Shown piece after piece: positions 3,726 to 64,000 of a stretch of 64,000 nucleotides of DNA. The stretch covers positions 2,230,501 to 2,294,500 of the forward strand of contig NZ_CP045571.1 of assembly GCF_009662475.1 (NCBI RefSeq), given 5' to 3'. The translations under genes and the position numbers were made by a program. This stretch comes from Acidithiobacillus thiooxidans ATCC 19377. GTDB taxonomy: Bacteria; Pseudomonadota; Gammaproteobacteria; Acidithiobacillales; Acidithiobacillaceae. The notes under the pieces were generated by a model. It saw nothing but the letters and a program-made list of their open reading frames with translations, ran no database searches and was not told the DNA's origin. The first letter of the stretch is position 1. Every line of letters begins with the position of its first letter.

Positions 3726-3771
3726 AAATTAAGATTTCGTGCTTGGCGATTAGAAAAGGAAGTTTTAACCG

Positions 3772-28934: not shown

Positions 28935-29885
28935 CTATAGCTCCGGCCCGTTTTTTAATTCACCCAGCTTAATATCCCTGCTCAGCCCAGACAGCAATCC
29001 GTTGACAGCATTCTCGAAATATTTTTCATACCCGTCCTTGCCAAACACCCGGTCAAGTCGTGTCTGGGGCAGAAACCTGGACATTTGGGTGCGAAAAGCA
29101 TCTCCGCCAGCGATCACAGGAACTGCGGCAATCGCCCTCTCCAAAAATTGTGGAAAGCCCTCCAACCCATAATCCGTGATCTTCTTTTTGACCAGACGGG
29201 CGTCCATCCGCGCCCCCTGATGGGACAACCAGGCAATATCCCAAATATCCCGATGTCTGACCCGCGATGGGGTAAACTCCATCTTTTGGTCAACCATTCT
29301 GGAAATGGATGCGGGAAGCGCAATCAGTTTATCCGCAAGAATCTCGTCCATGGACTCGACCGCCACCAAAGGTTGACTACGCCCCTCCAGAACGGAGTAG
29401 TTAATTCGCACTGGAAGAATGTCCCTGGAATATGCCGGCACATTGGCAATTTCCAGTTTGATCTTTTGCCGTGGCAGGTCCGGACGATCCGGGCTGGTCT
29501 GGATCGTGATCATCCATTTATCTACCCGCACTGCCCCATCAAATGGTGCATTCTTGGGTTCCCGGACCGCGATATCCAGACCAAAGCGCTTGCCAATCTT
29601 CCCGGCAATGCAACCTTTGAGGGCAGCCATACTCTTGGCCGAAAAATTCTTTCCACCTGCAAAGTCAAGGTCTTCGCTAAATCGCTCCGAGCCATAACAT
29701 AAGCGCAAAGCGGTTCCGCCCTGAAACACCAGGCCATTTAATAGTCCATCTTCATCCAACGCGCTAAAAATCTCATAATGCAGTAATTCCTTTTCCACCA
29801 CAGGACGGAGAAACCCAAGTCCATCACCCTGCATGGCCAAACTCACATATCGCGCAAAATCGTTTTCATTCATCATCCACCTCAT
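28935..29885 (-). CDS. abiEii: AbiEii-type nucleotidyltransferase toxin
   Basis: 316 residues. FQGGTALRLCYGSERFSEDLDFAGG holds the G-S/T-x-x-R-x-S-x-D-x-D nucleotidyltransferase core, and ESMDEILADKLIALP is the conserved C-terminal block of the AbiEii group. The toxin of this type IV-like system transfers nucleotides to an RNA target (tRNA in related enzymes). A start at 29876 or 29873 is possible. It overlaps the antitoxin gene by about 20 nt. Confidence 0.85.
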   Translation of the reverse strand: MRWMMNENDFARYVSLAMQGDGLGFLRPVVEKELLHYEIFSALDEDGLLNGLVFQGGTALRLCYGSERFSEDLDFAGGKNFSAKSMAALKGCIAGKIGKRFGLDIAVREPKNAPFDGAVRVDKWMITIQTSPDRPDLPRQKIKLEIANVPAYSRDILPVRINYSVLEGRSQPLVAVESMDEILADKLIALPASISRMVDQKMEFTPSRVRHRDIWDIAWLSHQGARMDARLVKKKITDYGLEGFPQFLERAIAAVPVIAGGDAFRTQMSRFLPQTRLDRVFGKDGYEKYFENAVNGLLSGLSRDIKLGELKNGPEL

Positions 29886-30408
29886 TTAGATCAATCATGT
29901 TCACGTTCCGTCCCACACGATAAAGGTCCTGAATGGCGGCCTGCTTCTTGGCAATCCGTAAAGGGCGTCCCTTGACGATCAACGTTCTTTCCAGAAGATC
30001 CGGAATGCTCCGCCGGGTATGCGTGAATTCAATCGTTCCAAATGGGGTCTTGTGGAGCCCTCTTGCGCCGGTGGTCATGACCGTCAGGCGATCGATGGGG
30101 ATCTGGGAAATCACCCCATATTCCGAGAGAATGCTTTCCAGGGAAACGTAACTGAAATCTCCCGGGCGCAGGGCCTGCGCGATATGCTCGATCAGCCAGC
30201 CCCTGTGTCGCGCCACAGCTGGGCCAAAAACATAGATACCGCGAGCGGCGCGTACCAGAAGTCTGTCCTGGCACATGCGCTGCAAACTCTTTTCCAGCGC
30301 TTTCTCGCTATCCTGCGGAAAAATCTTTTCCAGATCCCGCCGGGCATAGACGACAAGACTTTTCTGTTCCAGAGCGGACAGGCGATTCAGCAGATCCATG
30401 CGTTTCAT
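29866..30408 (-). CDS. abiEi: AbiEi-type antitoxin
   Basis: 180 residues from the ATG at 30408. The N-terminal winged helix (NRLSALEQKSLVVYARRDLEKIF ... LVRAARGIYVFG) represses the operon and the C-terminal domain (GPAVARHRGWLIEHIAQALRPGDFSYVSLESILSEYG) neutralises the toxin in known AbiE systems. First gene of the pair. A phage-defence and element-stability function is established for the family. Confidence 0.85.
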   Translation of the reverse strand: MKRMDLLNRLSALEQKSLVVYARRDLEKIFPQDSEKALEKSLQRMCQDRLLVRAARGIYVFGPAVARHRGWLIEHIAQALRPGDFSYVSLESILSEYGVISQIPIDRLTVMTTGARGLHKTPFGTIEFTHTRRSIPDLLERTLIVKGRPLRIAKKQAAIQDLYRVGRNVNMIDLNEVDDE

Positions 30409-30474
30409 GTATGTGATAACCAGACAGTTATGTAGGGTTTCTATGCACATAGTAGCACATGCTCTGCAGCCTGC

Positions 30475-42178: not shown

Positions 42179-43132
42179 ATGAGCGCAGTCCGTTTAGTAT
42201 CCACCAAGGCCATGAACCGTGAGGAATGGCTGCAATGGCGTAATCGGGGGATTGGCAGCAGTGATGCTCCAGTCGCGGTTGGGGTATCCCGTTACAAAGC
42301 ACCCCTGGAATTGTGGCTGGAAAAAACTGGGAAAAAGGAACCGGAAGACTTATCCAGTAAAGATGCGACGTTTTGGGGTACGACACTAGAGCCCATTGTG
42401 GCCCAGGTTTATGCCGAAAGAACCGGCAAGAAAGTACGCAGAGTCAATGCCGTCCTGCAGCATCCCGACTATCCCTTCATGCTCGCCAATTTGGATCGGA
42501 TTGTGGAGGGTGGCGGAATATTGGAAATCAAAACGGCAGGCCTACGCAGTCAGGGACAATGGGAAGAAGGCGTGCCATTGGCCTATCAGATCCAGGTGCT
42601 GCATCAACTCGCCGTTACCGGAAAAAGCTGGGCTGATGTCGCGGTCCTGATCGGTGGGCAGGAATTCCGCATTTACCGCATAGAGCGGGATAAAACCCGC
42701 ATTACGCAATTGCTGAAATTGGAAAAAATCTTCTGGCAGCACGTTGAAAGGCAAACGCCTCCAGAGGCAGATGGTTCTGATTCCAGTCACCGTGCCTTAT
42801 CTCTCTTGTATCCCCAGAACAGCACCACGCTGGTGGATTACAGTGAAAAGTCGGAGATGAATGCCTTGTTCAAATCCCTCATTGAAGCCAGACAACGCAG
42901 CAAACAGGCAGAGCAGCAGGAAGCGTTACTGGAACAGCGGGTCAAGGAAGCCATAGGTAACGCCGAAGGTGCCCTCTTCAGCCAAGGCAAAGCTTTGTGG
43001 AAATGCAGTAAACCCAGCCGAACCCTGGACACCAAAAGACTGGCTCAGGAACAGGCTGATCTCATTGCGCCCTACTGGACTGAAAAACCCGGTACCAGGC
43101 GCTTTACCGTACAAACAGGAGAACCATCATGA
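42179..43132 (+). CDS. YqaJ-type (lambda exonuclease fold) nuclease
   Basis: 317 residues. WLQWRNRGIGSSDAPVAVGVSRYKAPLELW is the YqaJ opening; FWGTTLEPIVAQVYAERTGKK has the conserved Glu, ANLDRIV the Asp, and ILEIKTAG the E-x-K pair of the PD-(D/E)xK active site. A C-terminal coiled coil (about 230-270) follows. The 5'-3' exonuclease prepares ends for annealing recombination. It overlaps the next gene by 4 nt. Confidence 0.9.
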   Translation: MSAVRLVSTKAMNREEWLQWRNRGIGSSDAPVAVGVSRYKAPLELWLEKTGKKEPEDLSSKDATFWGTTLEPIVAQVYAERTGKKVRRVNAVLQHPDYPFMLANLDRIVEGGGILEIKTAGLRSQGQWEEGVPLAYQIQVLHQLAVTGKSWADVAVLIGGQEFRIYRIERDKTRITQLLKLEKIFWQHVERQTPPEADGSDSSHRALSLLYPQNSTTLVDYSEKSEMNALFKSLIEARQRSKQAEQQEALLEQRVKEAIGNAEGALFSQGKALWKCSKPSRTLDTKRLAQEQADLIAPYWTEKPGTRRFTVQTGEPS

Positions 43133-43992
43133 TAAAAGGACTAGCCATTACACCCCCCGTCATTGGTCGGATAGCCATTGGCAAAGTCGTAGAAAAGAAC
43201 GGCAAGCGCCTTCCCGAGAAGGATGATGCTTTTACTATCACTACGCAGGTACAGCACAAAGGTGAATGGATACTGCATCCTCTTCACAATACGTTGCTTG
43301 CCCAGCAGGACGGCGGAAAACTCAGGAGCATTCCCGTCAACCTGCTCTTCAATGATCCAGACTTGAATCTCAGGGCTGAATACAGCCTGTTTGATCGTAA
43401 AACTGGCAGACCGCTTTGTGTAGGGAATGGCGAAGTGGCCCGGCGTAGTACGCAGGAAGGATATAAAACCATCATCTGTCCCGGCCCCCAGAATTGTGCG
43501 CTGGGGGCAGAGTTGGGTTGCAAACCCTATGGGCGATTGAATGTGCAGATCGAGGGACAGGAAGATGATCTGGGCAGCTTTATGTTCCGGACCACGGGGT
43601 ACAATTCCATCCGGACACTGGCGGCACGTTTGCAGTATCTCAACGCTGTCAGTGGAGGCAGGGCACGTTATCTGCCACTGTCCTTAAAGCTCAGAGCCAA
43701 AAGTACCACTCAGTCCCATCGTGCTCCTGTCTACTATGTGGACATTACGACAAGGGACGGCATAAACTCCCAACAGGCGCTGAGGCAGGCCAGGGAACAA
43801 GCGGATCAATCCGTGGAATCCATGGAGGCTCTTGAAACAGCAGCTAAACTGGGACTCAGTAATGGCGCGTTCGAAGATGCCGAAGAGGAAGGCATTGATG
43901 TAGTGGAAGAATTCTTTCCAGTGCAACAGGAAGATCAGCAGTCTGAAGATATGCCTGTATTGACCGCGATGGAGACGCGGCGCGTGGGGTGA
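43129..43992 (+). CDS. gp3-like recombination protein (hydrolase/metal-binding annotated family)
   Basis: 287 residues starting in an ATGA overlap. MIKGLAITPPVIGRIAIGKVV, RSIPVNLLFNDPDLNLRAEYSLFDRKTGRPLCVGNGEVARR and FRTTGYNSIRTLAARLQYL are the diagnostic blocks. CPGPQNCALGAELGC provides four Cys or so for a metal. Its constant partnership with YqaJ exonuclease suggests the single-strand annealing or directionality function of the pair. An acidic tail of 60 residues follows. Confidence 0.8.
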   Translation: MIKGLAITPPVIGRIAIGKVVEKNGKRLPEKDDAFTITTQVQHKGEWILHPLHNTLLAQQDGGKLRSIPVNLLFNDPDLNLRAEYSLFDRKTGRPLCVGNGEVARRSTQEGYKTIICPGPQNCALGAELGCKPYGRLNVQIEGQEDDLGSFMFRTTGYNSIRTLAARLQYLNAVSGGRARYLPLSLKLRAKSTTQSHRAPVYYVDITTRDGINSQQALRQAREQADQSVESMEALETAAKLGLSNGAFEDAEEEGIDVVEEFFPVQQEDQQSEDMPVLTAMETRRVG

Positions 43993-44000
43993 TGAGACTA

Positions 44001-44033
44001 TCCCTGGGCTATATGCTCAGGGAGTGTTTTTTT
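44001..44033 (+). terminator. rho-independent terminator
   Basis: CCCTGGGC-TATAT-GCTCAGGG (one G-T pair) then a run of seven T residues; ends the recombination operon. Confidence 0.8.
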
Positions 44034-44256
44034 GCTGATTGCAACTTTAACAGGAGCGTCATTTTTTAACGGTGAAAGAATGGTGGATGAAGGGCTGGTA
44101 AAGAGTGACAGTGGTCATTGAGCAGAGGAAAAAGCAAATGACATCATCATCCGACCCGATGCGGTTGGTCAGTTTTCTCCACAGCAGACGCCAATTCGGC
44201 CAACTTGCCATCGGCAATATGGCGCTATCGCCAGCGCTGCCGAGTTTGCCTAGACG

Positions 44257-47200
44257 TCAAACGCCAGAAGCTTCGTGTTGGCCAACGACATCGCTGATCT
44301 CTCCTTCAAGTGGTTGCCTAGCATGGACGCTGTCACGAATATCCTCAACGAGATTAATGCAGTCTACCAGGTCAAGAGCATTTGGCCTTATGTCTGCTAA
44401 CGCCAATTTTGACTCGCGCAAGTATCCCCCGCGCTGGATGTGTTGGAGGGCAGCGGAGATTGAGCGGATTTGGTCATCGACGACACGGCGTAGTGTGGCT
44501 TCGTGATGAACGGATTCATTTAAGTACGATAGCCCTGCTTGGAATTGTTTCCAAGTCTGGGAAGAAAGCAGCGCTATAAGAGGATTATCTGGGAACTTGC
44601 CGAACTGCATGTCAAACCATCGCCGCATTTCGCGCTTTCGTCGAAAGGAAAGTAAGGCGAAGATCAGCAATAAGCCCCAAATCGACAAGGCCATAGCGAC
44701 GATGCCAACCACCATGGTCGGCGCTGAAATTAAAAGGCCAAGCGCATGGTTTGCCGCAAAGGAAACAATAATGCCGAAAACGTAAGCTGTTGCTCCCAAA
44801 ATGCCCATTATCAATAACATCCAAGCGAACATCTTGGCCGTCTCGAAAATAGATATTCGGCGACGCATCCGGCGAATAAAGAATCCGACGTTCAGCGGCT
44901 CCCCAAGGGTCCTAAAGCGGAAGAGCACTATCGGAAATATCGTAATGAGAAGGGGCACGACGAGGAGCAATAAATCAAAGAAAGTATTTATTATCCCGTT
45001 ACTGCTATGAATCGGCGTATAGAGCTTAGTCGGACTTACAACGGACATTTCTTGAAGAGCCCGTAGCATTTCATTCGAGCTATGGTTACTGGGTACCACC
45101 ATGAATAGCAATGCAAACACATATAACGTAATACTGTTTAACAACAACAATGCGAATTTGGTGTCTTGCGTAGCAGTGTGGCTCTTATTCTCTTGGGCAG
45201 TGAACAACGTCGTCACAACACCAATCGCCGCCTCCAATCGGGTCGGCAATCCAGTAAAGCTGACAAGATTAGTTAGCTTCCTAAGTAGAACGCAACGCCG
45301 GTAAACGTACCCTGCTCCTAAGTCGCGTGGGAGCCGTGCGACGAGAGCCTCCATGCGCAATAGCGCCGATGCGTCCTTCGCACCGAGTATTTCGTCCGCC
45401 AAGCGGTCAAGAACCGCTTGCTTAACCGCACTAGGAATCTCTCCAACAAGAGCGGTCGTGTGGTTGAAACCTTCGCTCTGAGCCTTGTCGCTACCCACCA
45501 AGAAGGTTTCCTCTAGGTACTTGCTGAGCGTTGCCTGTGGCAGGAGTGTGGCGACTCGGACTACCATCATTCGATCAAACGAGTCCCCGGTCTCCCAACG
45601 GACCTTTAAGAATTTTTCGACATGGGTAGAGAGCATCTCAGGAATTATAGAGACACGACGCGCCAAGCCTTCTTGTAGAAGGTTCAGCATCTGCGTTGAT
45701 TCGCTTGTCCACTCAAAATAGCCACAGCAATCGCTAAGCGGAATAAGTGCATCTCGCCGATACTGCCTGTCTGTAGCTTCGACCAATATCTGAACGGCTG
45801 CCTCGAACATCTCAATTAATGCTTCGTCGGGTTGAGTCTGCAGCAACGTCACCGCGTACTCTCGCCACCGTGGCTCTGTGAGGAGATCATAGCCAGAAAG
45901 GTATCCTGGATGAGCGACAAGATGACGAACGAAGAGCGCTTCCTGATATCGACGGTGCGCGAAAGCAAAGCGGCGGTCTCCAAGAGCGGCGTTTGCTACA
46001 TCGGCTCTGGCAATTTTCGCATCTACCATTGCTGCAACGAACCGCTGAATGTCTCCCCCGGGCACCTCAGCTTTGTTCAGAACGGTCTCGACTTGATCAA
46101 TGGTAGGTGCCAAACCTAATGATGATTCTTCCGCAAATAAGCGTGCTATTCGTTGGGCACCTTTCAGAAGCTCTGCCGGGTCAAGGCCATAGATTCGCCG
46201 GAGGTAAGCGGGATCCCGATGAGCAAGTCCATCAATCTGCAGCGATAGCAACTCGTAGTCGTTCTTGGGGGCCGTCTTCGCTCCTTTTACATAACGGCAC
46301 AGCAATGTTAGGAATAACGGTGTATTCGCCAAAGTACTTTTGCTAGTAGCGAGGTGATGCAGCACCTCACGTTCTTGTGCTTGAGATAAGAAGGCGTTTG
46401 CCACCAATTCTCGCTGCTTACCTGAAGTCAAGCGTAGTATGCGAAATTTCTTCCATGGCAGAGACTCGGGCCCTTTGAATTCACGCGAGGCTAAAATACC
46501 TCGACACTCCCCATACCCTCAAGGAATTTACGGATAGCTTCAGCATACTCCTTAGTAACAGGACTCCCTTTCTCCGCGTGCAGTACCGCCGGGATTTCGT
46601 CGAAGGAGTCAAACAGAAAGAACCATATGCCGCGTTCCCGATAGTCGGCCCAGTTTTCGCGCACATAGGCCGTAGTGTCGCTGTCTCCCCGCCGAATATT
46701 ATCGAGGATGAAATCGCGTATTGTATCGGTAGTGATTGATAAATTCGCAGAGACCTCTATTTCGCGGAGGTTAATATAGAGAGGCACAAGAGCATCTTTT
46801 GCCTTACTGGTTTTCGCTCGGACTGCCAGCTGGCTTGCAAGATGTCGGAGCGCCACACTCTTGCCAGCGCCGGGCTCCCCGGTTAGTTGAATTGCTCGTT
46901 CACTGCTCGAGGAAATAGCCTTAATGAGAGACTTCTCCTTGCGCAGACCGGTCGATATCCGTCCAAAGAGACGATGCAACGAAGAGATGTAGTAGCCACC
47001 TTCAGTCTCGACCTCCGCTTCAAGGTCGGTGAAATATTGATCGTTCCAACTCTCAGCCTTTGCGATGTTGGTGAGGTCGGCTTCTAGCACTGCACAGAAT
47101 TGAGTGCGGCGCCGGACTTTGATTCTGTCTTCCCGCTTCATAAAGCGGGGAAGTCCGCTTGACTTGAATGCCTCGATGAGTTTGAACGCGCTATCAAAGG

Positions 47201-47372
47201 CTTTTCGAAGTGCGCCAAAGAAAACTGTTAGCGCCCAAAGCAGAACAACCACCAGAACGACACTGACAACCAGTTTACGCCAGGTTTCGCTAGTTCCAGT
47301 CCATCCCCACAGCTTGTTAAAGATGCTTAGCGCCACGCTTCCCAACGAGGCACTTCCATCTTGATCAGCCAT
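44257..47372 (-). pseudogene. Membrane NACHT-type STAND NTPase split by a frameshift
   Basis: The N-terminal frame (46491-47372) has a membrane helix (34-53), the NACHT P-loop GEPGAGKS (165-172) and Walker B FLFDSFDEIP (252-261), then stops after KFLEGMGSVEVF. One base later the frame continues GILASREFKGPESLPWKKF and runs to 44257 as helical repeats plus four membrane helices (about residues 440-640 of that part). Adding one G near 46499-46503 joins them into about 1038 residues. NACHT proteins of bacteria are phage-defence sensors. The break may be true inactivation or a sequence error. Confidence 0.8.
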
Positions 47373-47703
47373 CGCTATTCTCCGTTTTTCTCTTGCTGCG
47401 CCCTATCATGCCGCGTGCTATCCGGCGCCGTTGGCTATGGCTGCTACGCACTGTAACCGAATTATTTATTGAAAAACCAGCTCGTCTATACGACAATTCA
47501 TAGAAAGACTTGAGAAGAAATTGGTTAGAGGAAGCCTGATTATTGGCAATGCGCATGCCCGCCCCGAACGTCTCAATTCGTCCGATATTACCCGCTCCCA
47601 GTCTGGATGTGAACGACTGCTTCCGCTGCATACCGTCCATACAACCAACGATACGGGCACGATTTTTTGTAGCTGTGACCGTCGCGTCAGAAAAAATCAT
47701 CAT
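47365..47703 (-). CDS. Uncertain ORF before the NACHT gene
   Basis: 112 residues, basic at the C-terminus (VRSSHSQRRRIARGMIGRSKRK). It overlaps the start of the NACHT gene by 8 nt and the end of the J-domain-like gene by 17 nt. Codon use is unremarkable and the two overlaps look like coupling, but no family match is seen. It could be a chance frame. Confidence 0.3.
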   Translation of the reverse strand: MMIFSDATVTATKNRARIVGCMDGMQRKQSFTSRLGAGNIGRIETFGAGMRIANNQASSNQFLLKSFYELSYRRAGFSINNSVTVRSSHSQRRRIARGMIGRSKRKTENSDG

Positions 47704-48799
47704 CTATGCAATGTTGCAAGGCCATTTCGCGTCGAGCCGCCTTTATCCAGCGTTTGAGGTAGACGGGTTGCGCAAGTCGCTTCATCTCCTGTTGTAACCC
47801 GCTCATGGCTTGTCGGGTTGCCTGGATGGTTTCCTGAAGGTCCCGCGACAGAGCCTGCGGTGAGTGTACCGCAAAAGGGGATACCCCGAGATTGCTGGCC
47901 AGATGCTGCTGAAGTGCCTGCATTTTACCTTTTAAGGTCGCGAGTTGTTCCTTGAGGGCCTGGTTGTACTTTTTTAAATGCGCATCGCCCAGTTGATGAA
48001 TGGCTTGCGCGTTCATCAGGCCCAACTCGTGCTGGAGAGCCAGCAGTTGCAGGAGATCATTTTCCCCATAGGCCTGATTGATTCGCTGCATCAGCACCGT
48101 TTTCTGAGCACGTAGGATCGGATCCGCTTCCCGGTCGGGATGAACGGCACTGACCAAGCGCCGATAGATGCTCTGCAAGGACTCGCGGATCTGCCCTGCC
48201 TGTTCTGCCTGACGCGCTTCCTGCGCCTTTTGTCGGGCCGTTTTAGGTTGGGCACGTTGACGTTCCCGCTGTGACTGCGTTCGGCGCCCTTCCCTTTCCG
48301 TCCATGCTTCTGGGTTTTCTGAATCCCCATTTCCCGGACCCGCCCCAGCAGCTTCGGGGTTGAGGTTGAAAAAATCCTCCATGGACGCTTTCATCTCGGC
48401 GAACAGGGCCTGTTCTTCGGTATCAGTGCCGCCATGCCGATCATATATTTCCTGCAACTGTGGATCGGAAGATTCCGTCATGAGGTGCTCGGCCAATTGG
48501 GCGATCATCTGGGATAGCGTCTCGCTATCCGCTTTACCGAGTTTCTGGGTCAGGCTGATGCTGTCCAGCTGAACCAGCAGCTGAATACGCAATTGCAGAT
48601 GCTGATCCCGCAACGGCAGTAGGTCCTTGAGCACACGCAGTCGCGTCGCCTCCATAGCGAACTCCCAATCGCTCATCTGTTTCCGGACTTTGGCAATCTG
48701 CTGGCTGAGCCGGTGAAAAGTCTTTTGTTCCGACGACAGAGGGGCGTCAGTCCGTTCCGGTTGCATTATCAGCTGTGCAGGAAGTCGTAAGGGGGTCAT
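47687..48799 (-). CDS. J-domain-like protein
   Basis: 370 residues from the ATG at 48799; the frame is open to 48925, so a longer form is possible. The key feature is IYRRLVSAVHPDREADPILRAQKTVLMQRINQAY, a J-domain with HPD at 220-222, preceded by a Gln/Arg-rich charged linker (about 170-205). J-domains stimulate DnaK. Helical regions flank it (about 25-105 and 250-360). It lies downstream of umuC on the same strand. Plasmid-borne J-like proteins of this kind have no assigned client. Confidence 0.7.
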   Translation of the reverse strand: MTPLRLPAQLIMQPERTDAPLSSEQKTFHRLSQQIAKVRKQMSDWEFAMEATRLRVLKDLLPLRDQHLQLRIQLLVQLDSISLTQKLGKADSETLSQMIAQLAEHLMTESSDPQLQEIYDRHGGTDTEEQALFAEMKASMEDFFNLNPEAAGAGPGNGDSENPEAWTEREGRRTQSQRERQRAQPKTARQKAQEARQAEQAGQIRESLQSIYRRLVSAVHPDREADPILRAQKTVLMQRINQAYGENDLLQLLALQHELGLMNAQAIHQLGDAHLKKYNQALKEQLATLKGKMQALQQHLASNLGVSPFAVHSPQALSRDLQETIQATRQAMSGLQQEMKRLAQPVYLKRWIKAARREMALQHCIDDDFF

Positions 48800-48940
48800 G
48801 CCTATATCCTGTTGTGGAAGGGAACAGGGAAAGAGAGAAGGCGCCAGTCTACGCCGAGGCTCTTTCATGGTGCAAACGCCGTTTCCCGGACCCGCCACCT
48901 TCCCGCACGTTGACTTTGATCCCATAGGGGCTGATTCCGG

Positions 48941-52851: not shown

Positions 52852-53075
52852 ATCCCATTTCTTTCAATTAGTTATATTTTATCATATATAACTAAAATTG
52901 GAAGGTTTTTCGAGGTGCCCTTACATTAGTTCTGCCTTTCAGCGCTAATTTTCAAGACCAACGAGATCAAATTTTGCGTCACAAAAACCACCCCAGCTTG
53001 ACGAAACGGTTTGCCTTGACTACGGTTAATACCAACTGGACGGTATATAAATTCCCCATGTTGAGAGGTTATTTC

Positions 53076-53808
53076 ATGAAAATGCAAGATTTAAAAGGTA
53101 AGGTTGCTGTTGTCACTGGAGCATCCAGTGGAATTGGTGAGGCTAGCGCCAGACTGCTTGCGGCCGAGGGTATGCATGTAGTCTTGGTAGCTCGTCGTCG
53201 CGAGCGCTTAGAAAAACTGGCCCAGGAAATTGGCGATACCGCCTTGGTGATGCCTGCTGACTTGCGAAAACCGGAGGAAGTGCTTCATTTGTTTGAAGCT
53301 GTTGGAAATCATTTTAAGGGAATTGATTTGCTATTCAATAATGCTGGTCTTGGTTATCACGCTGAGTTTGCTGATAGTAAACCGCATGAATGGGAAGAAA
53401 TGATTGGCCAATTTGTACGGAGTGCTCCGCTGTACACATGCAGCTATACCCTTACTTAGAGGGAGACCTGGGGCAATGATTTCGACGGTTTCCAGCGTGG
53501 GTGGTCGCTACGGTCTTCCTGGTTGGTCTGTTTATAATGCAACCAAATTTGCGGTGGTCGGCTTTCATGACGCCTTACGTAAGGAGCTCGGGCCGGAAGG
53601 TATTCGGGTGGCACTCATTGAGCCGGGTGCAGTCTGGACAGAATGGGGTTTTAATGTTTCCGAAGAGAGTATGCACAAAAGACGAGAGTCCCTGGAGGCT
53701 CTCCATGCAGATGATGTTGCCCAGGCTCTCGTATACAGTTTTGCTCAACCGGCTCATGTGCTTGTCGAAGAAATTCTGGTTCGTCCTGTCAAGCAAATCG
53801 TGCCATAG
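53076..53808 (+). pseudogene. Short-chain dehydrogenase with a frameshift
   Basis: From the ATG at 53076, VAVVTGASSGIGEASARLL is the NAD(P) Rossmann motif and LLFNNAGLGYHAE the NNAG block. The frame breaks near 53404 after EEMIG and continues in another frame as ANLYGVLRCTHAAIPLL, with the catalytic Ser (STVSSVGGRYG) and Y-x-x-x-K (YNATK). A two-base loss would explain the break. The intact enzyme would be about 244 residues, a classical SDR. Confidence 0.8.
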
Positions 53809-53923
53809 GGAAGTTCGGCTGTAATTAAAGATCAATCCCATCAACTCGATGTGAATACTCCACCGACTGATATGTATTGACCTGTCAAATTTTCCGATAA
53901 CGTGCTCCTGATATCATCATGTA

Positions 53924-55338
53924 GAGCTATGCTCGAAAGTGGTGTACGGGCGCGTTACAACTGGCTTGAATGAGGTGGCGTACTGTTGCTACAAAGGGTT
54001 TCCGACTCAAAGAGCAACATAAGGAGTACGCCGTGGAAAAGAATACCGTAATAGCAGGTGGGATGGGAGAGTTGGGTCTGGGCATTGAAGGGATACTTCG
54101 ACGCGCGGCACGCTCTCTGATTGAGCAGGCCATAGAGGCAGAGGTGGCGGTATTGCTGGAAGAATTTGCGACGGTGCGGATGGTTGATGGGCGTCAGGCG
54201 GTCGTGCGTAATGGGCATCTGCCGGAGCGCGAGATCCTGACCGCTCTGGGTCCGGTACCCGTCAAAGTACCCAAGGTGCGGGACCGCTCAGGATCGGGGA
54301 TCAAATTCAATTCGGTACTGGCGCCTCCGTATGTACGCAAATCACGAACGGTAGCCGCTACAGTACCTTGGCTCTATCTGCATGGGGTGTCTTCCGGCCA
54401 CATGCAGGAAGCCCTTTCCATTTTGCTGGGTGATGAGGCCAAGGGACTTTCACCTGCGGTGTTGGGACGTCTCAAGGCGGAGTGGGCGCAAGAGTATGCC
54501 CATTGGCAACACCGCTCCCTACAGGGAAAGCGCTATGCTTACTGGTGGGTAGACGGTATTTATACGAACCTCCGTGCGGAGGAGGATCCGCGTATCTGCC
54601 TGCTGGTGATTATCGGCGTGACGGCAGAGGGCAAGAAAGAGCTGGTCAGTGTCAGTGACGGCCTGCGCGAATCCAAAGCTTCCTGGCTGGAGATCCTGCG
54701 TGACCTGCAGGCGCGCGGTCTGGAGACGGCCCCTTTGCTCGCCATTGGGGATGGTGCCATGGGGTTTTGGGCCGCACTGGATGAAGCCTATCCCGAAACT
54801 GGTCAGCAACGCTGCTGGGTGCATAAGACCGCCAACATTCTCAACGAACTTCCCAAAGCCCAACAGAGCAAAGCCAAGGCAGCGTTGCAGGAAATCTGGA
54901 TGGCCGCCAATCGCCAGGCTGCGGAAAAAGCACTGGACGTGTTTGTGCGCAATTACCAGGCAAAGTATCCCAAGGCCGTGGCTAAACTGGAAAAAGATCG
55001 GGCTGAATTGCTCGCTTTCTATGATTTTCCGGCCGAACACTGGCGGCATATCCGGACCACCAATGCCATTGAGTCCACCTTCGCTACGGTACGCCACCGG
55101 ACTACCCGGACGAAGAACTGTGTATCACGCAGCAGCTTTCTGGGATTGGGTTTCAAGATGCTGCAGCAGGCTGAAAAACGCTGGATTGGGATTTATGCTC
55201 CAGAGAAAGTCCTGCAGCTTTTTGCAGGGGTGAAATTTATCGATGGCTTACCGGCTAACCTCACCCTGCCGGATGATCAACAGACCGCCGCCTGATCTAT
55301 GTCAGAAAATGCTCATACACCAGATTTGACTATAGCTC
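53924..55338. mobile_element. IS256-family insertion sequence
   Basis: 1415 bp, bounded by imperfect inverted repeats (GAGCTATG..., matched by reverse complement GAGCTATA...), with about 20 of 28 end positions shared. Both sides carry the 9-bp direct duplication CATCATGTA (53915-53923 and 55339-55347), the expected target length for this family. Confidence 0.95.
54033..55295 (+). CDS. IS256-family transposase (mutator type)
   Basis: 420 residues from a GTG with AAGGAG 8 nt upstream. YWWVDGIYTN holds the first Asp, LLAIGDGAMGFWAALDEAYPETGQQRCWVHKTANIL the second with the C-x-x-H pair, and TTNAIESTFATVRHRTTRTK the Glu of the DDE core. Intact, so the copy is probably active. Confidence 0.95.
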   Translation: MEKNTVIAGGMGELGLGIEGILRRAARSLIEQAIEAEVAVLLEEFATVRMVDGRQAVVRNGHLPEREILTALGPVPVKVPKVRDRSGSGIKFNSVLAPPYVRKSRTVAATVPWLYLHGVSSGHMQEALSILLGDEAKGLSPAVLGRLKAEWAQEYAHWQHRSLQGKRYAYWWVDGIYTNLRAEEDPRICLLVIIGVTAEGKKELVSVSDGLRESKASWLEILRDLQARGLETAPLLAIGDGAMGFWAALDEAYPETGQQRCWVHKTANILNELPKAQQSKAKAALQEIWMAANRQAAEKALDVFVRNYQAKYPKAVAKLEKDRAELLAFYDFPAEHWRHIRTTNAIESTFATVRHRTTRTKNCVSRSSFLGLGFKMLQQAEKRWIGIYAPEKVLQLFAGVKFIDGLPANLTLPDDQQTAA

Positions 55339-57005: not shown

Positions 57006-57131
57006 TTAATGGGCCTGCTTCCGTTCCCATCGGGGATGCAGCAGTTCGGTGACTATTTCAACCTCATTGAGGGCCGTGGTCACGACAAGAGTGGCGACGC
57101 AGTTTTTCTTCATGTCGTTTTCTCTATTCAT
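57006..57131 (-). CDS. Mini-ORF coupled to ecsC
   Basis: 41 codons, starting inside the end of the ecsC gene (ATGAATAG overlap) with an internal ATG at 57113. MKKNCVATLVVTTALNEVEIVTEL looks like a short hydrophobic helix with a Cys. Possibly a lipoprotein- or toxin-like peptide; low confidence. Confidence 0.35.
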   Translation of the reverse strand: MNRENDMKKNCVATLVVTTALNEVEIVTELLHPRWERKQAH

Positions 57132-57828
57132 CGAAGTAGGTTACCCCCTCGGTAATAAACATCTTCTTGGCTGTTTTGCCGATCATCCGCGTCGTCACAG
57201 AGTCGAAAGCCCCACTAATTGCTCCACCAAGGAAGGGCACAAGTTTCCCCATATTGATGAGGCCTGTACTTCCCGCTTTTGTGACCAGCCGAAACCCTAC
57301 CGCTTGGTTGATTTTTATCAAAATCGTTCCAGGGATTTTTTTAATGGCGGATTCGGCGACTTTCACGCCGAACTTTATGCCAAAATCTTTGGCGATGTCG
57401 GCGATCGAATTACCGGTCAAAGCCATATATACAAATGTTTTCACCTGATCCTGTTGCAGGTTATAGCCGCCCATATGCGCAATGGCCGCTGACATTCGTA
57501 TTTGTATGAACACTACAGCGGCAATATTTGCCGGTATGGCCACGGGCAGCGTAATCAATCCACCCATCCCCGATAAAAAACCGGCAGTGCCCGCTTTGGC
57601 TATCTGCCAACTGATGAGGCTCTCAGCCGCTTTCTCGGGATCTCCGTCATTTTTCTGAAGATAATCTTCTGCAAGTTCTATGGCTGTTTCCAAACCCAAT
57701 CCGCCAGTTGTGGCTTTTTCATAGGCGTAATCCAGCACTTTCATCATGTTGGATTTTTCGTCTTGATTATCGGTACGTGTCACCATGTTGAACATTGCAT
57801 GCTCTCTATTCATAAAAAAAGAACCCAT
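57124..57828 (-). CDS. EcsC family membrane-associated protein
   Basis: 234 residues. LISWQIAKAGTAGFLSGMGGLITLPVAIPANIAAVVFIQIRMSAAIAHMGGYNL is the diagnostic EcsC block with two hydrophobic stretches; GKLVPFLGGAISGAFDSVTTRMIGKTAKKMF is the second. Function of the family is not established. The start at 57828 is 46 nt after the hsdM stop; 57813 is an alternative. Confidence 0.8.
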   Translation of the reverse strand: MGSFFMNREHAMFNMVTRTDNQDEKSNMMKVLDYAYEKATTGGLGLETAIELAEDYLQKNDGDPEKAAESLISWQIAKAGTAGFLSGMGGLITLPVAIPANIAAVVFIQIRMSAAIAHMGGYNLQQDQVKTFVYMALTGNSIADIAKDFGIKFGVKVAESAIKKIPGTILIKINQAVGFRLVTKAGSTGLINMGKLVPFLGGAISGAFDSVTTRMIGKTAKKMFITEGVTYFDE

Positions 57829-57874
57829 CTGAATGACTACCTGGTGAGCCGTGGAAACGGTTTGCCCTATAGAT

Positions 57875-59491
57875 TCAGTGATGTCTGCCCAGAAGCGGCA
57901 ACCCCAATTCCTGCAAAAAGGCATTATGCCGCTGGGTAGCCTCGGCGATCTGGTCTTCCAGTGTCGCCAGTTGCTGATGGACGGCTTGCAGATCAATTTC
58001 CTCTTCCGGTGTTGCTGTGCTGATATACCGGCTGATATTGAGGTTGTAATCATTGTCCGCAATCTCGGTCATAGGGACCCTGCGAGCGTAACGCTCTTCT
58101 TCCCGGCGAAATTGGTAGGTGTCGATGATCTTGTCGATATCTTCAGGGCGTAAGCGATTCTGGCGTTTGCCTTTCTCAAAGTGTTCGGCAGCGTTGATGA
58201 AGAGCACGTCATCGGGTTTCTTGCACTTTTTCAGGACGAGAATGCAAACCGGAATGCCGGTGGAGAAAAAGAGATTGGCGGGCAGGCCGATAACGGTGTC
58301 GATGTTCCCATCCTTGAGGAGTTTGGTGCGGATGCGTTCTTCCGCACCCCCGCGAAACAGCACACCATGGGGCAGAATGATGGCCATGACGCCTTCAGGT
58401 TTGAGGTAATGAAAGCCATGTAACAAAAAGGCGAAGTCAGCAGCAGATTTGGGCGCCAGACCGTAGTTCTTGAAACGCATGTCTTCACTCAGCGCACTAT
58501 TGGGTTCCCAGCGATAGCTGAACGGCGGATTAGCCACTACCGCATCAAACTGCGGAGCCTTGGCGGGATTGGCTTCGCGGAGATAGTCCCAATCATTCGC
58601 CAGGGTGTCGCCATGGTAGATTTCAAATTCGGAGTCTTTGACGCCATGAAGCAGCATGTTCATGCGCGCCAGGTTATAGGTAGTGATGTTCTTTTCCTGT
58701 CCGTAGATTTTGCCGATGCCATGCGATCCCATGCGATGCCGGACATTCAGCAGTAGCGATCCTGAACCACAGGCAAAATCCAGAACGCTGTCCAGTTGTT
58801 TTTTCTTGCCGGTAGCCGGATCCTGACTGTCGAGGGTGACGATACCGGAGAGGATGCTGGAAATCTGTTGCGGGGTGTAAAACTCGCCCGCCTTTTTACC
58901 CGATCCTGCGGCAAACTGGCCGATTAGATATTCATAAGCATCGCCCAGGACATCCTGATTGGTGGAGAATTGGGACAATCCCGCAGCGATGGCCTGAATG
59001 ACCGTGCATAGCTGTTGGTTGCGGGCACTGTAGTCCTTACCCAATTTTTCGGAGTTCAGATTGATCTCCGAAAAGAGGCCGTTAAAGGTACTGGCGAAGG
59101 ATTCGTTCTCAATGTAATCGAAACCCTTTTGCAGCTTATGGAGCAATTCTGCGTTTTGGGTGCGGGCCAGTTCCGAGATGCTGCCCCAGAGGTATTCAGG
59201 ACGAATCACATAGTGGATTTTGCGGCGCATCTGCGTTTCAAAAGCGTCGATATCCTCGGGATTGTGGGCATACCAGAGGGCCAGTGGGGTACGGCGGTCA
59301 CCGGCTTCCAGACGCGGATAATCGGGACCCAGTTCCTTGGCTGCGGCCATTTCGTAGTTATCGGACAGATAACGCAGAAACAGAAAGGAGAGCATGTAAT
59401 CGCGGAAGTCATCGGCATTCATGGCACCGCGTAGCTGATCGGCAATGCCCCAGAGGGTGTTGCCCAGTTGTTTTTGGTCGATTTCAGTCAT
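57875..59491 (-). CDS. hsdM: Type I restriction-modification methylase subunit
   Basis: 538 residues from the ATG at 59491. QLGNTLWGIADQLRGAMNADDFRDYMLSFLFLRYLSDNYE is the conserved helical N-terminus; DFACGSGSLLLNV is motif I, VVANPPFSYRW is motif IV (N-P-P-F, N6-adenine). A C-terminal coiled coil (LQAVHQQLATLEDQIAEATQRHNAFL) contacts HsdS. Two HsdM bind one HsdS to methylate or, with HsdR, cut DNA. Confidence 0.95.
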   Translation of the reverse strand: MTEIDQKQLGNTLWGIADQLRGAMNADDFRDYMLSFLFLRYLSDNYEMAAAKELGPDYPRLEAGDRRTPLALWYAHNPEDIDAFETQMRRKIHYVIRPEYLWGSISELARTQNAELLHKLQKGFDYIENESFASTFNGLFSEINLNSEKLGKDYSARNQQLCTVIQAIAAGLSQFSTNQDVLGDAYEYLIGQFAAGSGKKAGEFYTPQQISSILSGIVTLDSQDPATGKKKQLDSVLDFACGSGSLLLNVRHRMGSHGIGKIYGQEKNITTYNLARMNMLLHGVKDSEFEIYHGDTLANDWDYLREANPAKAPQFDAVVANPPFSYRWEPNSALSEDMRFKNYGLAPKSAADFAFLLHGFHYLKPEGVMAIILPHGVLFRGGAEERIRTKLLKDGNIDTVIGLPANLFFSTGIPVCILVLKKCKKPDDVLFINAAEHFEKGKRQNRLRPEDIDKIIDTYQFRREEERYARRVPMTEIADNDYNLNISRYISTATPEEEIDLQAVHQQLATLEDQIAEATQRHNAFLQELGLPLLGRHH

Positions 59492-59526
59492 GATGGCAGG
59501 GGATCCCTTGGGAAAAAGTGTTTCGC

Positions 59527-59745
59527 TCAGACATCGGCGGTTCCGGATGATTTCTGGGCCTCGGCATCGGCTTCGCGCAGTTCCTGGGCGGAAATGCGGA
59601 CGCATTGCCCATCCCGGACCATCACAATGCCGGTATTAGTTTGTATGGCGATCTGTCTGGCCAGTTGAGCGGCTCGACGCATGGCCGCCATGGAAGCGCG
59701 CAAATCCGGATTACGGGCCTGGGCGATGTCTTTGCCGGTATTCAT
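59527..59745 (-). CDS. Small partner of the zeta-like toxin (putative antitoxin)
   Basis: 72 residues from the ATG at 59745, overlapping the toxin stop by 4 nt. Helical N-terminus (LRASMAAMRRAAQLARQIAIQTNTGIVMVRDGQCVRISAQELREADA) with a short beta hairpin, as in small Phd/Epsilon-unlike antitoxins. The downstream order (toxin first) is unusual. Assignment rests on position. Confidence 0.55.
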   Translation of the reverse strand: MNTGKDIAQARNPDLRASMAAMRRAAQLARQIAIQTNTGIVMVRDGQCVRISAQELREADAEAQKSSGTADV

Positions 59746-60263
59746 GGATTTTCTCCCCATTCCAACAGTAAAGGTTCTGGACCGCTATTATCATACTTCG
59801 CCCAGCTATTGACGCGATATCGATAGTATTGCTCGAAGTGCTGTAATCCCGCATCAAAGCGGCGGCGAATGACCTGCTCAGGGATATCGTGACCGCCCTG
59901 ACGCACCCGTTCGGCCACTCGGGCAATGGCAGTTTCGGCATTGGGTAAGGCCAGAAAAAACAGTTCCACGTCATATCCCTGTGATCGCCATTGTTGAATA
60001 TGGCGTAAATAGGTGAGACCAGAAAGAGTGGTTTCAAAGGCCAGGCTTTCTCGACGACGGACACAGGCGGCAATTTCTTCGAGCATCAATCGTCCTGCCC
60101 GCATGTTGGCTACTTCAGGGGCAAAGGGGGATAGACCGGCTGCGATCAGATCCGCATTGATGAAACGTGGGCACTGGGCTTCATCGGGCAGAAAGGATCG
60201 GGCAAAGGTGGTTTTACCGGCGCCATTGGGTCCTGCGATGATGATAATTTTGGGGCTGGGCAT
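59742..60263 (-). CDS. Zeta-toxin-like kinase
   Basis: 173 residues. IIIIAGPNGAGKTTFARSFLP is the P-loop, RFINADLIAAGLSPF the Asp-bearing substrate loop, LAFETTLSGLTYLRHI the zeta-type block, and RVRQGGHDIPEQVIRRRF the C-terminal Arg block. Zeta/PezT toxins phosphorylate UDP-GlcNAc and stop cell-wall synthesis. Its place between hsdS and hsdM would tie restriction and addiction. Confidence 0.8.
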   Translation of the reverse strand: MPSPKIIIIAGPNGAGKTTFARSFLPDEAQCPRFINADLIAAGLSPFAPEVANMRAGRLMLEEIAACVRRRESLAFETTLSGLTYLRHIQQWRSQGYDVELFFLALPNAETAIARVAERVRQGGHDIPEQVIRRRFDAGLQHFEQYYRYRVNSWAKYDNSGPEPLLLEWGENP

Positions 60264-60265
60264 GC

Positions 60266-61534
60266 CTATTCCTCAGAGACCTGCGGGAATAACTGCTGCA
60301 TTAAGCCTTTTTTGTGGGTCTTGAGCGCTTCGAGCTTTTGGGTTTGGGCGGTGATGAGGTCATCGAGGCTGGTTAGGCATGAGGCGATGCGTTTCTGCTC
60401 ATCAAGTTCTGGGAGATACACGGGTAGTGCCTCTAAGACACCAGCATTTACATTCTTTTGTGCCCCTCCCGCTTCTGCGCCCAAAACAAATCGTTTTCCT
60501 ATTTCAGAATTTATAAATGCACAAAGGTATTTTGCGTCCAAAAGACTCTTCTTTGGCCGAGTTATTAGAGACGTAAAACACTGCGCGTTGTGGTAACGCT
60601 CGGTAACAACCGCAGACAAACCGGGGTAGCCAGTTCTAACCGTGATGACATCTCCCGATCTCAATCGTTTGTTCTTGTGAGCCGCTTCGTAAGCGGGATC
60701 GATGAATAGAAGGCTGGAATCATCGATTTTTCCCTCTTTGATGTTTTGATTCCTCAGCATAGGCACGCCAGTTTCACGATATGCATGAGTGGCAGCGCTT
60801 GCTATTCCGACCATAATCTTGTCGGCCAAGGCAGCGAGTGGCAAAGTTTGCCACTCCCCAGCATTTTGAAATTCAGGAAAACGAAGACGGGGTTGTGTTT
60901 CTCCTTCGCGGGGGAAAAGCTGCTGCATCAGCCCTTTTTTATGGGCCTTGAGACTATCAAGCTTTTGCGCCTCCAGCGTGATCAGGTCGTCGAGGGAGGA
61001 AAGGCATTCGGCGATTTTTTGTTGTTCTGCAGGACTTGGGAGCGCAACTTGCAGCTTCATAAAGTCATTCTTGCTCATCACCCGATTTCTTCCCGCTCCG
61101 CCGGGAGAAATCACGCCCAAGTTGTAAACAAATTGTTTATCGAGGATAAAGTATCTGAAGAATCCAGGGGTCGTTCTGCCTTTCTCAAATGTGTAGGTGG
61201 GAAATCGGTGTGACACCAGTGCTCCCTCGTCACGCTCTTTAGCAATCGCCACCGCTCCTTCCCAAGCAAACGTGATGTTCACGATCAGGTCGTTGGCCTT
61301 CACCTCGTATAGTTGATCCATTGAGTTCTTCGCAGGGTCTTCGAGCAGCTTCAAGAAAGTGCCCTTCCCATGACTTCTCAGGCCAAGGCCCAGATATGTC
61401 TCAGCTGGTTTTGGCCTTTCTCGCACTACTGGCGAAAGGACTTCATCAAAGCGGTTTACTTTCCAAGGCTCCGCCCCCCGAAACTCCGGAAACCGCAGCC
61501 TGGGCACCCGTCCATTATTTGTTATTCCACTCAT
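60266..61534 (-). CDS. hsdS: Type I specificity subunit
   Basis: 422 residues with two target-recognition domains (about 1-150, 215-375), each followed by a near-identical helical repeat: LSSLDDLITLEAQKLDSLKA and LTSLDDLITAQTQKLEALKT, both ending HKKGLMQQLFP. The repeats set the spacer length between the two half-sites. ATG overlaps the preceding 40-codon gene (ATGA). Confidence 0.95.
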   Translation of the reverse strand: MSGITNNGRVPRLRFPEFRGAEPWKVNRFDEVLSPVVRERPKPAETYLGLGLRSHGKGTFLKLLEDPAKNSMDQLYEVKANDLIVNITFAWEGAVAIAKERDEGALVSHRFPTYTFEKGRTTPGFFRYFILDKQFVYNLGVISPGGAGRNRVMSKNDFMKLQVALPSPAEQQKIAECLSSLDDLITLEAQKLDSLKAHKKGLMQQLFPREGETQPRLRFPEFQNAGEWQTLPLAALADKIMVGIASAATHAYRETGVPMLRNQNIKEGKIDDSSLLFIDPAYEAAHKNKRLRSGDVITVRTGYPGLSAVVTERYHNAQCFTSLITRPKKSLLDAKYLCAFINSEIGKRFVLGAEAGGAQKNVNAGVLEALPVYLPELDEQKRIASCLTSLDDLITAQTQKLEALKTHKKGLMQQLFPQVSEE

Positions 61535-61653
61535 CCGTTGTACTTTCCTAGTTCATCCTGCCGTAGCGGGTATTCCACGCTTAATTCATCAATCTGCAAA
61601 CGCTTTGTTTCCAATCGCGTGATAGCCGCGTTCTTGGACTGTTTACTGTTCAT
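61531..61653 (-). CDS. 40-residue gene between hsdR and hsdS
   Basis: The ATG lies within the end of hsdR (11 nt overlap), and the TGA overlaps the hsdS ATG (4 nt). The peptide (SKQSKNAAITRLETKRLQIDEL) is a charged helix. Exact coupling at both ends suggests that it is translated; at least it keeps ribosomes passing from hsdR to hsdS. Confidence 0.5.
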   Translation of the reverse strand: MNSKQSKNAAITRLETKRLQIDELSVEYPLRQDELGKYNG

Positions 61654-64000
61654 AAGCCTCCAGCCCCGAAATCTCCCGCCCCTGAGCCTGTTTATGCAGC
61701 AATGGAATCAAATCCTGCATGAGCGCGGTTTCCTTCTGGGTGCGGGCTTTCCAACCTAACTGTAGAGGCGCCAGTAATTCACTGAGCTGTTCTCCATCAA
61801 AAATCATCCGGTTCAGGGTCTGGGCCATGAAGTCCTGAAGGGTTTGGGTATCCAGTCCATGCGCCTGGGCGACTTCTTGTATCCGCTGCTGTTGATTCTG
61901 ACTCTTGAACTGTTCAAATCCTTCGCGAATAGCCGATTCATCCAATCCCTTACCCGCTTTCAGGGTATCGATATAAGCGGTAATCTCTTCCCGATCATCC
62001 AGGAACTGAGCATCGGACTGAATCAATCCCACCAGTGCTTCCCGATTCATGGTTTGTTTGCCCGGTGTAGGGTTCGTGTAACGACTGATCAGAGTCATGA
62101 TGTAGTCGTAATCAATCACGGCGGAAGCAAAAAGGACAAACTCAAAATCCAGCTGCTCGACTTCCGGACTGGTCTGTTCGCGGTTTTGTGCTCTTTGCTC
62201 GCGTAACCGCTGTGCCGTATCCAGATACACCCCCCGAAAGCCTTGTAAGGTTTCTGGCGGAACCATCTGTTCAATGCATTCCCGTTCTTCAGGAGTTAAA
62301 TCCGTGTATTGATCCAATTGGGTTTTGCAACGCTGCACTTCTTTGAAGCACTGTATGAACTGACAGCGCGCTGCATCGCCCTGCAGCTGCGGTACGGCTT
62401 CCGGGGCAGCCGGTAATCCCTGCGACTGCAGAAAGGTCTCTAATTGCCCCAGAGCACCTTGCAGGCGGTCGATGACCACCGGCGCTTTATCCACCAACCA
62501 GATTTTCTTGGCCTGTTCCCCGGATTGTCCGGAGAACAGGCTGATGGCGGTGTCTACGGCCGCTTGTTGCTGGCGAAAGTCGAGAATGTTGCCATAAGGC
62601 TTGGTGTCATTGAGTACCCGATTGGTGCGGGAGAACGCCTGAATCAGTCCGTGGTACTTGAGATTCTTGTCTACATAGAGGGTATTGAGATAGGCGGAAT
62701 CAAAACCGGTGAGGAGCATATCCACGACGATGGTGATATCGATTTTCTGGGCATGGGGTAGATCGGTGTTGGGGTATTGCTGATCCTTGATGCGCTTTTG
62801 GACATCCTGATAGTAGAGATCGAATTCCCCGATACGGTGACTCGTACCATAGCGGTGATTGTACGTGGCCATAATGGCCTGTAGGGCGGCTTTCTTGCGA
62901 TCCGGATCCTGAGCATTGTCGGCTTTCTCCTGGGGCAGGTCTTCCTGGATCTGCAGGACATCCTGATTCCCTTCCGGAGGAGGAGAAAAAACGCAGGCAA
63001 TGTTCAGGGGATGATAGTCGGGGTTTTCGGCCTGTTTCTCGGCCTGCATGGTCTCGAACAAACTGTGGTATTCAATGGCATCGACAATGGATGCCGTGGC
63101 CAGCAGGGCATTGAACTTGCGTCCAGCGGTCGCGGCATCATGTTTGGAGAGAATCGCTTCGACGATGGCGCGTTTGGCCAAGGCTTCTCCCGGTTTCGGT
63201 GCCTGTTTCCCATCGGGCTTGTAGTAGTCGATATGAAAGCGCAGGACATTGAGGTCATCAATGGCGTGGGTGATGGTGTAGGCGTGGAGCTGCTGCTGGA
63301 AGATGTCGGCGGTGGTGCGATAGGAGGCTTGTTCTCCCTCGATCTGCTGGTAATTGGCATTCTGCTCAAAGATCGGGGTGCCCGTAAAACCAAAGAGCTG
63401 AGCATTGGGGAAGAATGCCTTGATGGCCTGGTGGTTCTCGCCAAACTGGGAGCGGTGACATTCATCGAAAATGAAGACCATGTGCTTATGCCGTAAGGGT
63501 TCCAGTTTTTCCTTGTAATGGTTGCGATGATTCCCATCCAGAGCCAAACCGAGTTTCTGGATGGTGGTGACGATGACCTTATCGGCATAGTCGTCGGAAA
63601 GCAGACGGCTCACCAAGGTACCGGTGTGGGTATTGGCTTCTACACAGTTTTCCTGAAAGCGATTGAATTCATCGCGGGTCTGGCGGTCGAGGTCTTTGCG
63701 GTCCACCACAAACAGGCATTTGTCGATATCGGGGTTGTCTTTGAGGAGGGTCGAGGCTTTGAAGGAGGTCAGGGTCTTGCCACTGCCGGTGGTATGCCAG
63801 ATATAGCCATTGCCGCGATGCTGATGAATGCAGTCCACGATCGCTTTGACCGCGTAGATTTGATACGGCCGCATCATCAGGAGCTTTTGTTCGCTCGCGA
63901 CCAGTACCATGTAGCGGCTGATCATCTCCCCCAGCGTGCATTTCGCCAGAAAGGCGTCGGCAAAATCATCCAGATGGGTGATCTTGCTGTTGTCTTCCCG
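61643..64000 (-). CDS. hsdR: Type I restriction endonuclease subunit (N-terminus outside window)
   Basis: 785 residues are visible; the frame is open through the window edge. RPYQIYAVKAIVDCIHQHRGNGYIWHTTGSGKTLTSFKA carries Walker A (TGSGKT), VFIFDECHRSQFG the DECH box and FGFTGTPIF motif III, ending in the helicase and C-terminal assembly regions. The PD-(D/E)xK nuclease domain should lie beyond 64000. The stop at 61643 overlaps the 40-codon gene. Confidence 0.95.
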   Translation of the reverse strand, partial: REDNSKITHLDDFADAFLAKCTLGEMISRYMVLVASEQKLLMMRPYQIYAVKAIVDCIHQHRGNGYIWHTTGSGKTLTSFKASTLLKDNPDIDKCLFVVDRKDLDRQTRDEFNRFQENCVEANTHTGTLVSRLLSDDYADKVIVTTIQKLGLALDGNHRNHYKEKLEPLRHKHMVFIFDECHRSQFGENHQAIKAFFPNAQLFGFTGTPIFEQNANYQQIEGEQASYRTTADIFQQQLHAYTITHAIDDLNVLRFHIDYYKPDGKQAPKPGEALAKRAIVEAILSKHDAATAGRKFNALLATASIVDAIEYHSLFETMQAEKQAENPDYHPLNIACVFSPPPEGNQDVLQIQEDLPQEKADNAQDPDRKKAALQAIMATYNHRYGTSHRIGEFDLYYQDVQKRIKDQQYPNTDLPHAQKIDITIVVDMLLTGFDSAYLNTLYVDKNLKYHGLIQAFSRTNRVLNDTKPYGNILDFRQQQAAVDTAISLFSGQSGEQAKKIWLVDKAPVVIDRLQGALGQLETFLQSQGLPAAPEAVPQLQGDAARCQFIQCFKEVQRCKTQLDQYTDLTPEERECIEQMVPPETLQGFRGVYLDTAQRLREQRAQNREQTSPEVEQLDFEFVLFASAVIDYDYIMTLISRYTNPTPGKQTMNREALVGLIQSDAQFLDDREEITAYIDTLKAGKGLDESAIREGFEQFKSQNQQQRIQEVAQAHGLDTQTLQDFMAQTLNRMIFDGEQLSELLAPLQLGWKARTQKETALMQDLIPLLHKQAQGREISGLEAYEQ

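What the first reader, a model, noticed from the sequence alone, without database searches (positions are those of the whole stretch)
44257..47372. Membrane NACHT defence gene broken by one base
An N-terminal membrane anchor, an intact P-loop and Walker B, and a C-terminal region with four more membrane helices; a single G restored at 46499-46503 joins both parts. A STAND sensor with membrane parts at both ends is unusual and may act by membrane damage.
Basis: partly seen in the sequence, partly recalled or inferred. Interest (0 to 1): 0.6.

Follow-up and report, generated by a model that had tools for sequence, protein, structure and literature searches.

The report
Broken membrane NACHT immune-receptor gene
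This bacterial gene resembles animal NLR immune sensors and is built to sit in the cell membrane at both ends; the copy here is cut in two by a one-base frame change, but intact relatives are widespread and probably protect bacteria against phages.

Summary
Two same-strand frames (46491-47372 and 44257-46518, minus strand) make one about 1038-residue protein: one N-terminal membrane helix, an intact NACHT ATPase, winged-helix and helical parts, four C-terminal membrane helices. The architecture is not unusual: I found about 80 relatives in many phyla, in two supported clades. Clade I has 3-4 N-terminal helices and Pfam's NCH3 tail. Clade II, which holds this gene, has usually one N-terminal helix and no named C-terminal domain. 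A relative's model matches NOD2, NLRC4 and NLRP3. Close relatives lie behind integrases or beside Wadjet, RT-Toprim, CBASS-effector and type IIG genes. The NACHT core is conserved (52-80% identity); the membrane parts are not (11-38%). Most likely this is a dead or mis-sequenced copy of a single-gene, membrane-embedded bacterial NLR-like phage-defence receptor. Defence, and still more membrane damage, are inferred. Whether the break is biological or a sequencing error cannot be decided here.

The parts
46491..47372 (-). 5' part of the gene: 293-codon ORF with membrane anchor, linker and NACHT P-loop half
44257..46518 (-). 3' part of the gene: 753 open codons, one frame over; rest of NACHT, winged helix, helical repeats, four membrane helices, tail
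46505..46515 (-). place where the reading frame changes (upstream frame matches homologues to ...FLEGMG, downstream frame from ECRGILASREF)
47380..47383 (-). GGAG ribosome-binding-site-like sequence 7 bases before the ATG
   Evidence: read directly
47217..47273 (-). N-terminal membrane helix, residues 34-52
46857..46880 (-). Walker A GEPGAGKS, residues 165-172
46590..46619 (-). Walker B FLFDSFDEIP, residues 252-261
45949..45963 (-). family motif FAHRR in the winged-helix region, residues 471-475
45094..45150 (-). C-terminal membrane helix 1
44923..44979 (-). C-terminal membrane helix 2
44764..44820 (-). C-terminal membrane helix 3
44659..44715 (-). C-terminal membrane helix 4

Best explanation
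The locus is a copy, frame-broken in this assembly, of a widespread single-gene family of membrane-embedded bacterial NLR-like (NACHT STAND) receptors. In intact members the NACHT module lies in the cytoplasm, between an N-terminal membrane helix and a C-terminal four-helix membrane part with a cytoplasmic tail. Proposed mechanism: the fast-changing C-terminal half senses phage infection, probably at or near the inner membrane; the NACHT exchanges nucleotide and oligomerises; gathered N-terminal helices permeabilise the membrane and stop the infected cell. Shown: gene structure, family, NLR fold, conserved ATPase, variable membrane parts, island context. Inferred: topology in detail, phage defence (about 0.7), C-terminal sensing (about 0.5), membrane damage (about 0.4). 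The break falls before the second half of the NACHT, so as read this copy would give a truncated protein with no NACHT second half, winged helix or C-terminal part.
For: Intact relatives run through the junction: L004/L013 1042 aa, L010/L039 1118 aa, L048 1011 aa at 49%, L066 1047 aa at 43%, L064 1011 aa at 40%, L161-L163 at 53%. Tree: window with L048, L064, L066 (SH-aLRT 95-98; clade II 99). Window keeps 52 of 58 highly conserved columns, all P-loop and Walker B. A model of L048 (pLDDT 71; core mostly 80-93) finds animal NLR proteins as its first 35 PDB hits, best NOD2 6e-10. Integrase next door in L162, L163 (behind tmRNA), L164, L064, L024. Defence genes within 4.5 kb: RT-Toprim (L066), Wadjet JetC (L083), CBASS phospholipase effector (L070), type IIG (L060); a random control from another genome gave 11 matched PADLOC families against 143. 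NACHT 52-80% identical, N-membrane 13-38%, C-membrane 11-32% between close relatives other than the near-identical pair L161/L163. bNACHT rule of C-terminal sensor and N-terminal effector: PMC12169576.
Against: No member was found that has been tested, and no PADLOC or NCBIfam model covers the family. Many relatives sit among housekeeping genes. Fast divergence of membrane helices may only mean relaxed sequence demand. The membrane region of both models is low confidence. Matched-family counts are inflated by redundant models, and the control came from one genome.
Confidence: 0.6

Rival explanations
1. The gene is intact in the living organism and the frame change is a sequencing or assembly error.
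For: Only one lesion in about 1038 codons, in a short homopolymer stretch; all catalytic motifs are kept.
Against: In a sample of 34 conserved ORFs (43 kb) of the same assembly against another complete genome of the genus, no real frame change was found; the single flagged case was an artefact of an antisense ORF. A species of the same genus carries a decayed relic of the gene, so loss does happen. The sample bounds the error rate only loosely (about 1 per 14 kb at 95%).
Confidence: 0.35
2. A real short protein: the first frame ends where it should, or the two frames are separate working genes.
For: The 293-aa ORF has a good start and ribosome-binding site.
Against: The stop falls inside the NACHT core, before the SR motif; the homologues I examined at the junction are continuous there. 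The second frame has no start near the break that would keep the rest of the NACHT.
Confidence: 0.03
3. Programmed ribosomal frameshifting or phase variation joins the frames.
For: A one-base change between two conserved frames is the form such switches take.
Against: Homologues do not share a frame change here; other broken copies (L059, L087, L060) break elsewhere. The homopolymer is only four bases long. No Rfam element was found near.
Confidence: 0.04
4. The family is a membrane receptor, but the membrane parts are only anchors or a sensor; the effect comes from another activity or partner, or the role is not phage defence.
For: N-terminal helix number differs between clades (1 against 3-4); many neighbours are housekeeping genes.
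Against: No recurrent partner gene in 80 loci; integrase-adjacent and defence-island places; closest known relatives by domain are antiphage proteins.
Confidence: 0.3

Closest known systems
Bacterial NLR-related (bNACHT) antiphage proteins, e.g. bNACHT25/32 (PMC12169576)
   Same: NACHT module in a single large protein with N-terminal and C-terminal extra parts; active without a partner gene
   Different: bNACHT25/32 carry an N-terminal nuclease and NCH1; here membrane helices take both ends and no enzyme domain is seen
NACHT proteins with NCH3 (Pfam PF22729)
   Same: Clade I relatives (L013, L018, L021) match NCH3 at 1e-19 to 1e-23 and share the membrane-NACHT-membrane plan
   Different: The window gene and the clade II kin scanned have no NCH3 match; tails differ
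EruA antiphage NACHT protein (NCBIfam NF058535)
   Same: Weak similarity in the NACHT to winged-helix stretch, best 7e-11 in L064
   Different: Scores are about 41 bits against a cut-off of 1000; length and ends differ
Animal NLRs NOD2, NLRC4, NLRP3
   Same: Fold of the NACHT, helical and winged-helix parts
   Different: No LRR, no CARD or PYD seen; membrane helices instead; 12-15% identity
Avs (AVAST) STAND proteins
   Same: STAND logic; AVAST5 appears in the fold search
   Different: Only weak PADLOC matches to Avs2 in one relative
CBASS and type III CRISPR membrane effectors (Cap1, Csx23; PMC12642688, PMC11014256)
   Same: Proposed end effect: membrane permeabilisation on infection
   Different: They are switched on by nucleotide messengers and have no NACHT

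Membership tests
NACHT STAND NTPases (PF05729) | NACHT profile above cut-off, P-loop, Walker B with the acidic DxFDE signature | tested here: met
   40.1 bits against a 26.7 cut-off on the 5' part alone; motifs
NACHT STAND NTPases (PF05729) | Winged-helix and helical domains after the NBD, as in NLRs | tested here: met
   Fold search of the model of the 49% relative L048: NOD2, NLRC4, NLRP3 lead
bNACHT antiphage defence proteins | NACHT protein that protects bacteria from phage | not testable with these tools
   Context only
bNACHT antiphage defence proteins | Tripartite plan: N-terminal effector, NACHT, C-terminal sensor | tested here: inconclusive
   Three parts present; roles of the membrane ends unknown
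NCH3-bearing NACHT proteins (PF22729) | NCH3 domain at the C-terminus | tested here: not met
   No NCH3 match in the window gene or in the six clade II relatives scanned; present in the three clade I members scanned
EruA (NF058535) | Score above the equivalog cut-off of 1000 bits | tested here: not met
   12.7 bits for the 5' part, about 41 bits for the best relative
KAP P-loop NTPases | Membrane helices inserted inside the P-loop domain | tested here: not met
   No membrane helix within the 350 residues after Walker A in the window, nor in all but two of the relatives' ORFs where Walker A was found; the definition is from memory
PADLOC-DB 2.0.0 defence proteins | Strong match to a listed model | tested here: not met
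   Only P-loop-level matches, E no better than 6e-7

The most novel reading that the evidence does not exclude
A broad, untested class of bacterial NLR-like receptors whose sensing and killing parts are both membrane-embedded: one polypeptide that detects phage action at the inner membrane through a rapidly diverging C-terminal bundle and kills through oligomerised N-terminal helices, without any enzyme.
Probability: 0.3. Interest if true: 0.75.

Novelty: new variant of a known kind. Interest (0 to 1): 0.42.

Why it matters
If intact members defend, they would be an enzyme-free, membrane-resident form of the bacterial ancestors of NLRs, spread over many phyla and absent from the defence catalogues searched here. 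The conserved NACHT with diverging membrane ends gives a direct way to ask how an NLR-type receptor senses an event at a membrane. The copy in this window matters mainly as the pointer to that family.

Tried and rejected
Single-sequence scans of plasmids, IMG/VR and genome contigs with the 3' part found nothing; only the three-member alignment reached the family. Plasmid and phage records hold no relative even of L048. Recurrent partner gene: none. Repeats flanking the gene as insertion marks: only chance-like pairs. RNA element near the break: none. Homology between the clade II tail and NCH3: inconclusive. PDB relatives by sequence: none convincing. Fold of the window's own 3' part: all-helical, weak ARM/HEAT-like matches, no significant hit. 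Viral fold library: mostly general AAA ATPases. The main bNACHT survey (Kibby et al. 2023) is not in the held library, so I could not check whether these clades are among its clades.

Full report
Observation. On the minus strand, 46491-47372 codes 293 residues from an ATG with a GGAG seven bases before it, and 44257-46518 is open for 753 codons one frame over. The two other frames of the second stretch hold 36 and 39 stops. The first part has one membrane helix, a P-loop, Walker B and a Pfam NACHT match of 4.5e-10. The second has the rest of the NACHT, a long helical part and four membrane helices. Charges around the helices fit a periplasmic N-terminus, a cytoplasmic NACHT and a cytoplasmic tail (inference).

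Where it breaks. Close homologues read ...FLEGMGECKGILASREFKGPEALPWKK... without interruption. The window gives ...FLEGMG in one frame and ECRGILASREFKGPESLPWKK in the next. Apart from this the gene is not decayed: it keeps 52 of 58 columns that are at least 80% conserved among 62 full-length members, with all ATPase motifs.

Intact relatives. A search of the class gave a 1042-residue single ORF; the phylum gave one of 1118 residues. An alignment of three then found 80 loci among named genomes, most of them single ORFs of about 935-1120 residues with membrane helices at both ends and the motif DSFDEIP. The nearest are L048 Pseudomonas fluorescens (49% over 770 aa), L066 Glaciimonas immobilis (43% over 920) and L064 Duganella (40% over 922), and three viral-contig copies at 53%.

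Family structure. A tree on the NACHT and winged-helix columns gives two clades. Clade I has mostly 3-4 N-terminal helices; the three members scanned carry Pfam NCH3 at the end. Clade II has usually one N-terminal helix and no named C-terminal domain; the window is there with Pseudomonas, Duganella and Glaciimonas. Among close relatives the NACHT is 52-80% identical while the N-terminal and C-terminal membrane parts are only 13-38% and 11-32% (the near-identical pair L161/L163 is set aside). This fits a sensor or effector under changing pressure, but membrane helices drift fast in any case.

Fold. A model of L048 (pLDDT 71; NACHT to helical region mostly 80-93) finds NOD2, NLRC4, NLRP3, NAIP5 and NLRP1 as its first 35 PDB matches. 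The membrane bundle is modelled poorly in both models.

Context. No partner gene recurs in the 80 loci, so this looks like a single-gene system. In L163 the gene follows a tyrosine integrase at a tmRNA gene; L162, L164, L064 and L024 also have an integrase directly upstream; L048 has a tRNA-Ser 1.2 kb away. Four clade II loci hold known defence genes within 4.5 kb. A control of 96 ORFs from random places of another genome matched 11 PADLOC families against 143; the counts are inflated by redundant models, so I read this as support, not proof. Hotspots of defence genes next to integrases are described in PMC9122126. The window itself carries AbiE and type I restriction genes, but more than 10 kb away.

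Real or error. In the same assembly, 34 conserved ORFs (43 kb) compared with another complete genome of the genus showed no true frame change. That bounds the error rate loosely. A species of the same genus keeps only a decayed relic: the start and membrane helix at 81% DNA identity and about 80 bases of the 3' part, with other genes between. Loss of this gene therefore does occur. I leave real mutation somewhat ahead of sequencing error and do not decide.

Mechanism. From the bNACHT rule (C-terminal sensor, NACHT switch, N-terminal effector; PMC12169576), the likeliest reading is that the C-terminal half senses, the NACHT oligomerises and the N-terminal helices permeabilise the membrane. The order of parts and the ATPase are shown; sensing, oligomerisation and membrane damage are inferred. 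No tested member was found, and the main survey of bNACHT clades could not be read.

Noticed in passing
window 28935-30450 (-): AbiEi/AbiEii abortive-infection pair (PADLOC 1.7e-68 and 1.5e-102).
   Followed up: no
window 57124-63925 (-): Type I restriction genes hsdM and hsdS, with an hsdR-like ORF at 61643-63925; an ORF overlapping hsdM matches candidate defence family PDC-S29 (2.3e-82).
   Followed up: no
window 47687-48925 (-): A protein with a weak DnaJ-domain match lies just upstream of the NACHT gene, next to umuDC-like genes; DnaJ mediates sensing for bNACHT25 (PMC12169576), but this block is conserved in the genus without the NACHT gene, so probably coincidence.
   Followed up: partly
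window 43000-44116: A second copy (85%) of the recombination-directionality-factor region lies at G000:C1:2311962-2313080, suggesting a second related element nearby.
   Followed up: no
L012 (G010:C168) 210-305 and 3586-3853: Decayed relic of the same gene in another species of the genus, with toxin-antitoxin-like genes between the two ends.
   Followed up: partly
L162, L163: Viral contigs in which an intact relative directly follows a tyrosine integrase, in L163 at a tmRNA gene.
   Followed up: partly
L086, L092: Actinobacterial relatives with a caspase-like ORF as a downstream neighbour, judged by eye from its sequence.
   Followed up: no
window 52974-55295: A short-chain dehydrogenase gene appears truncated just before a transposase.
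   Followed up: no
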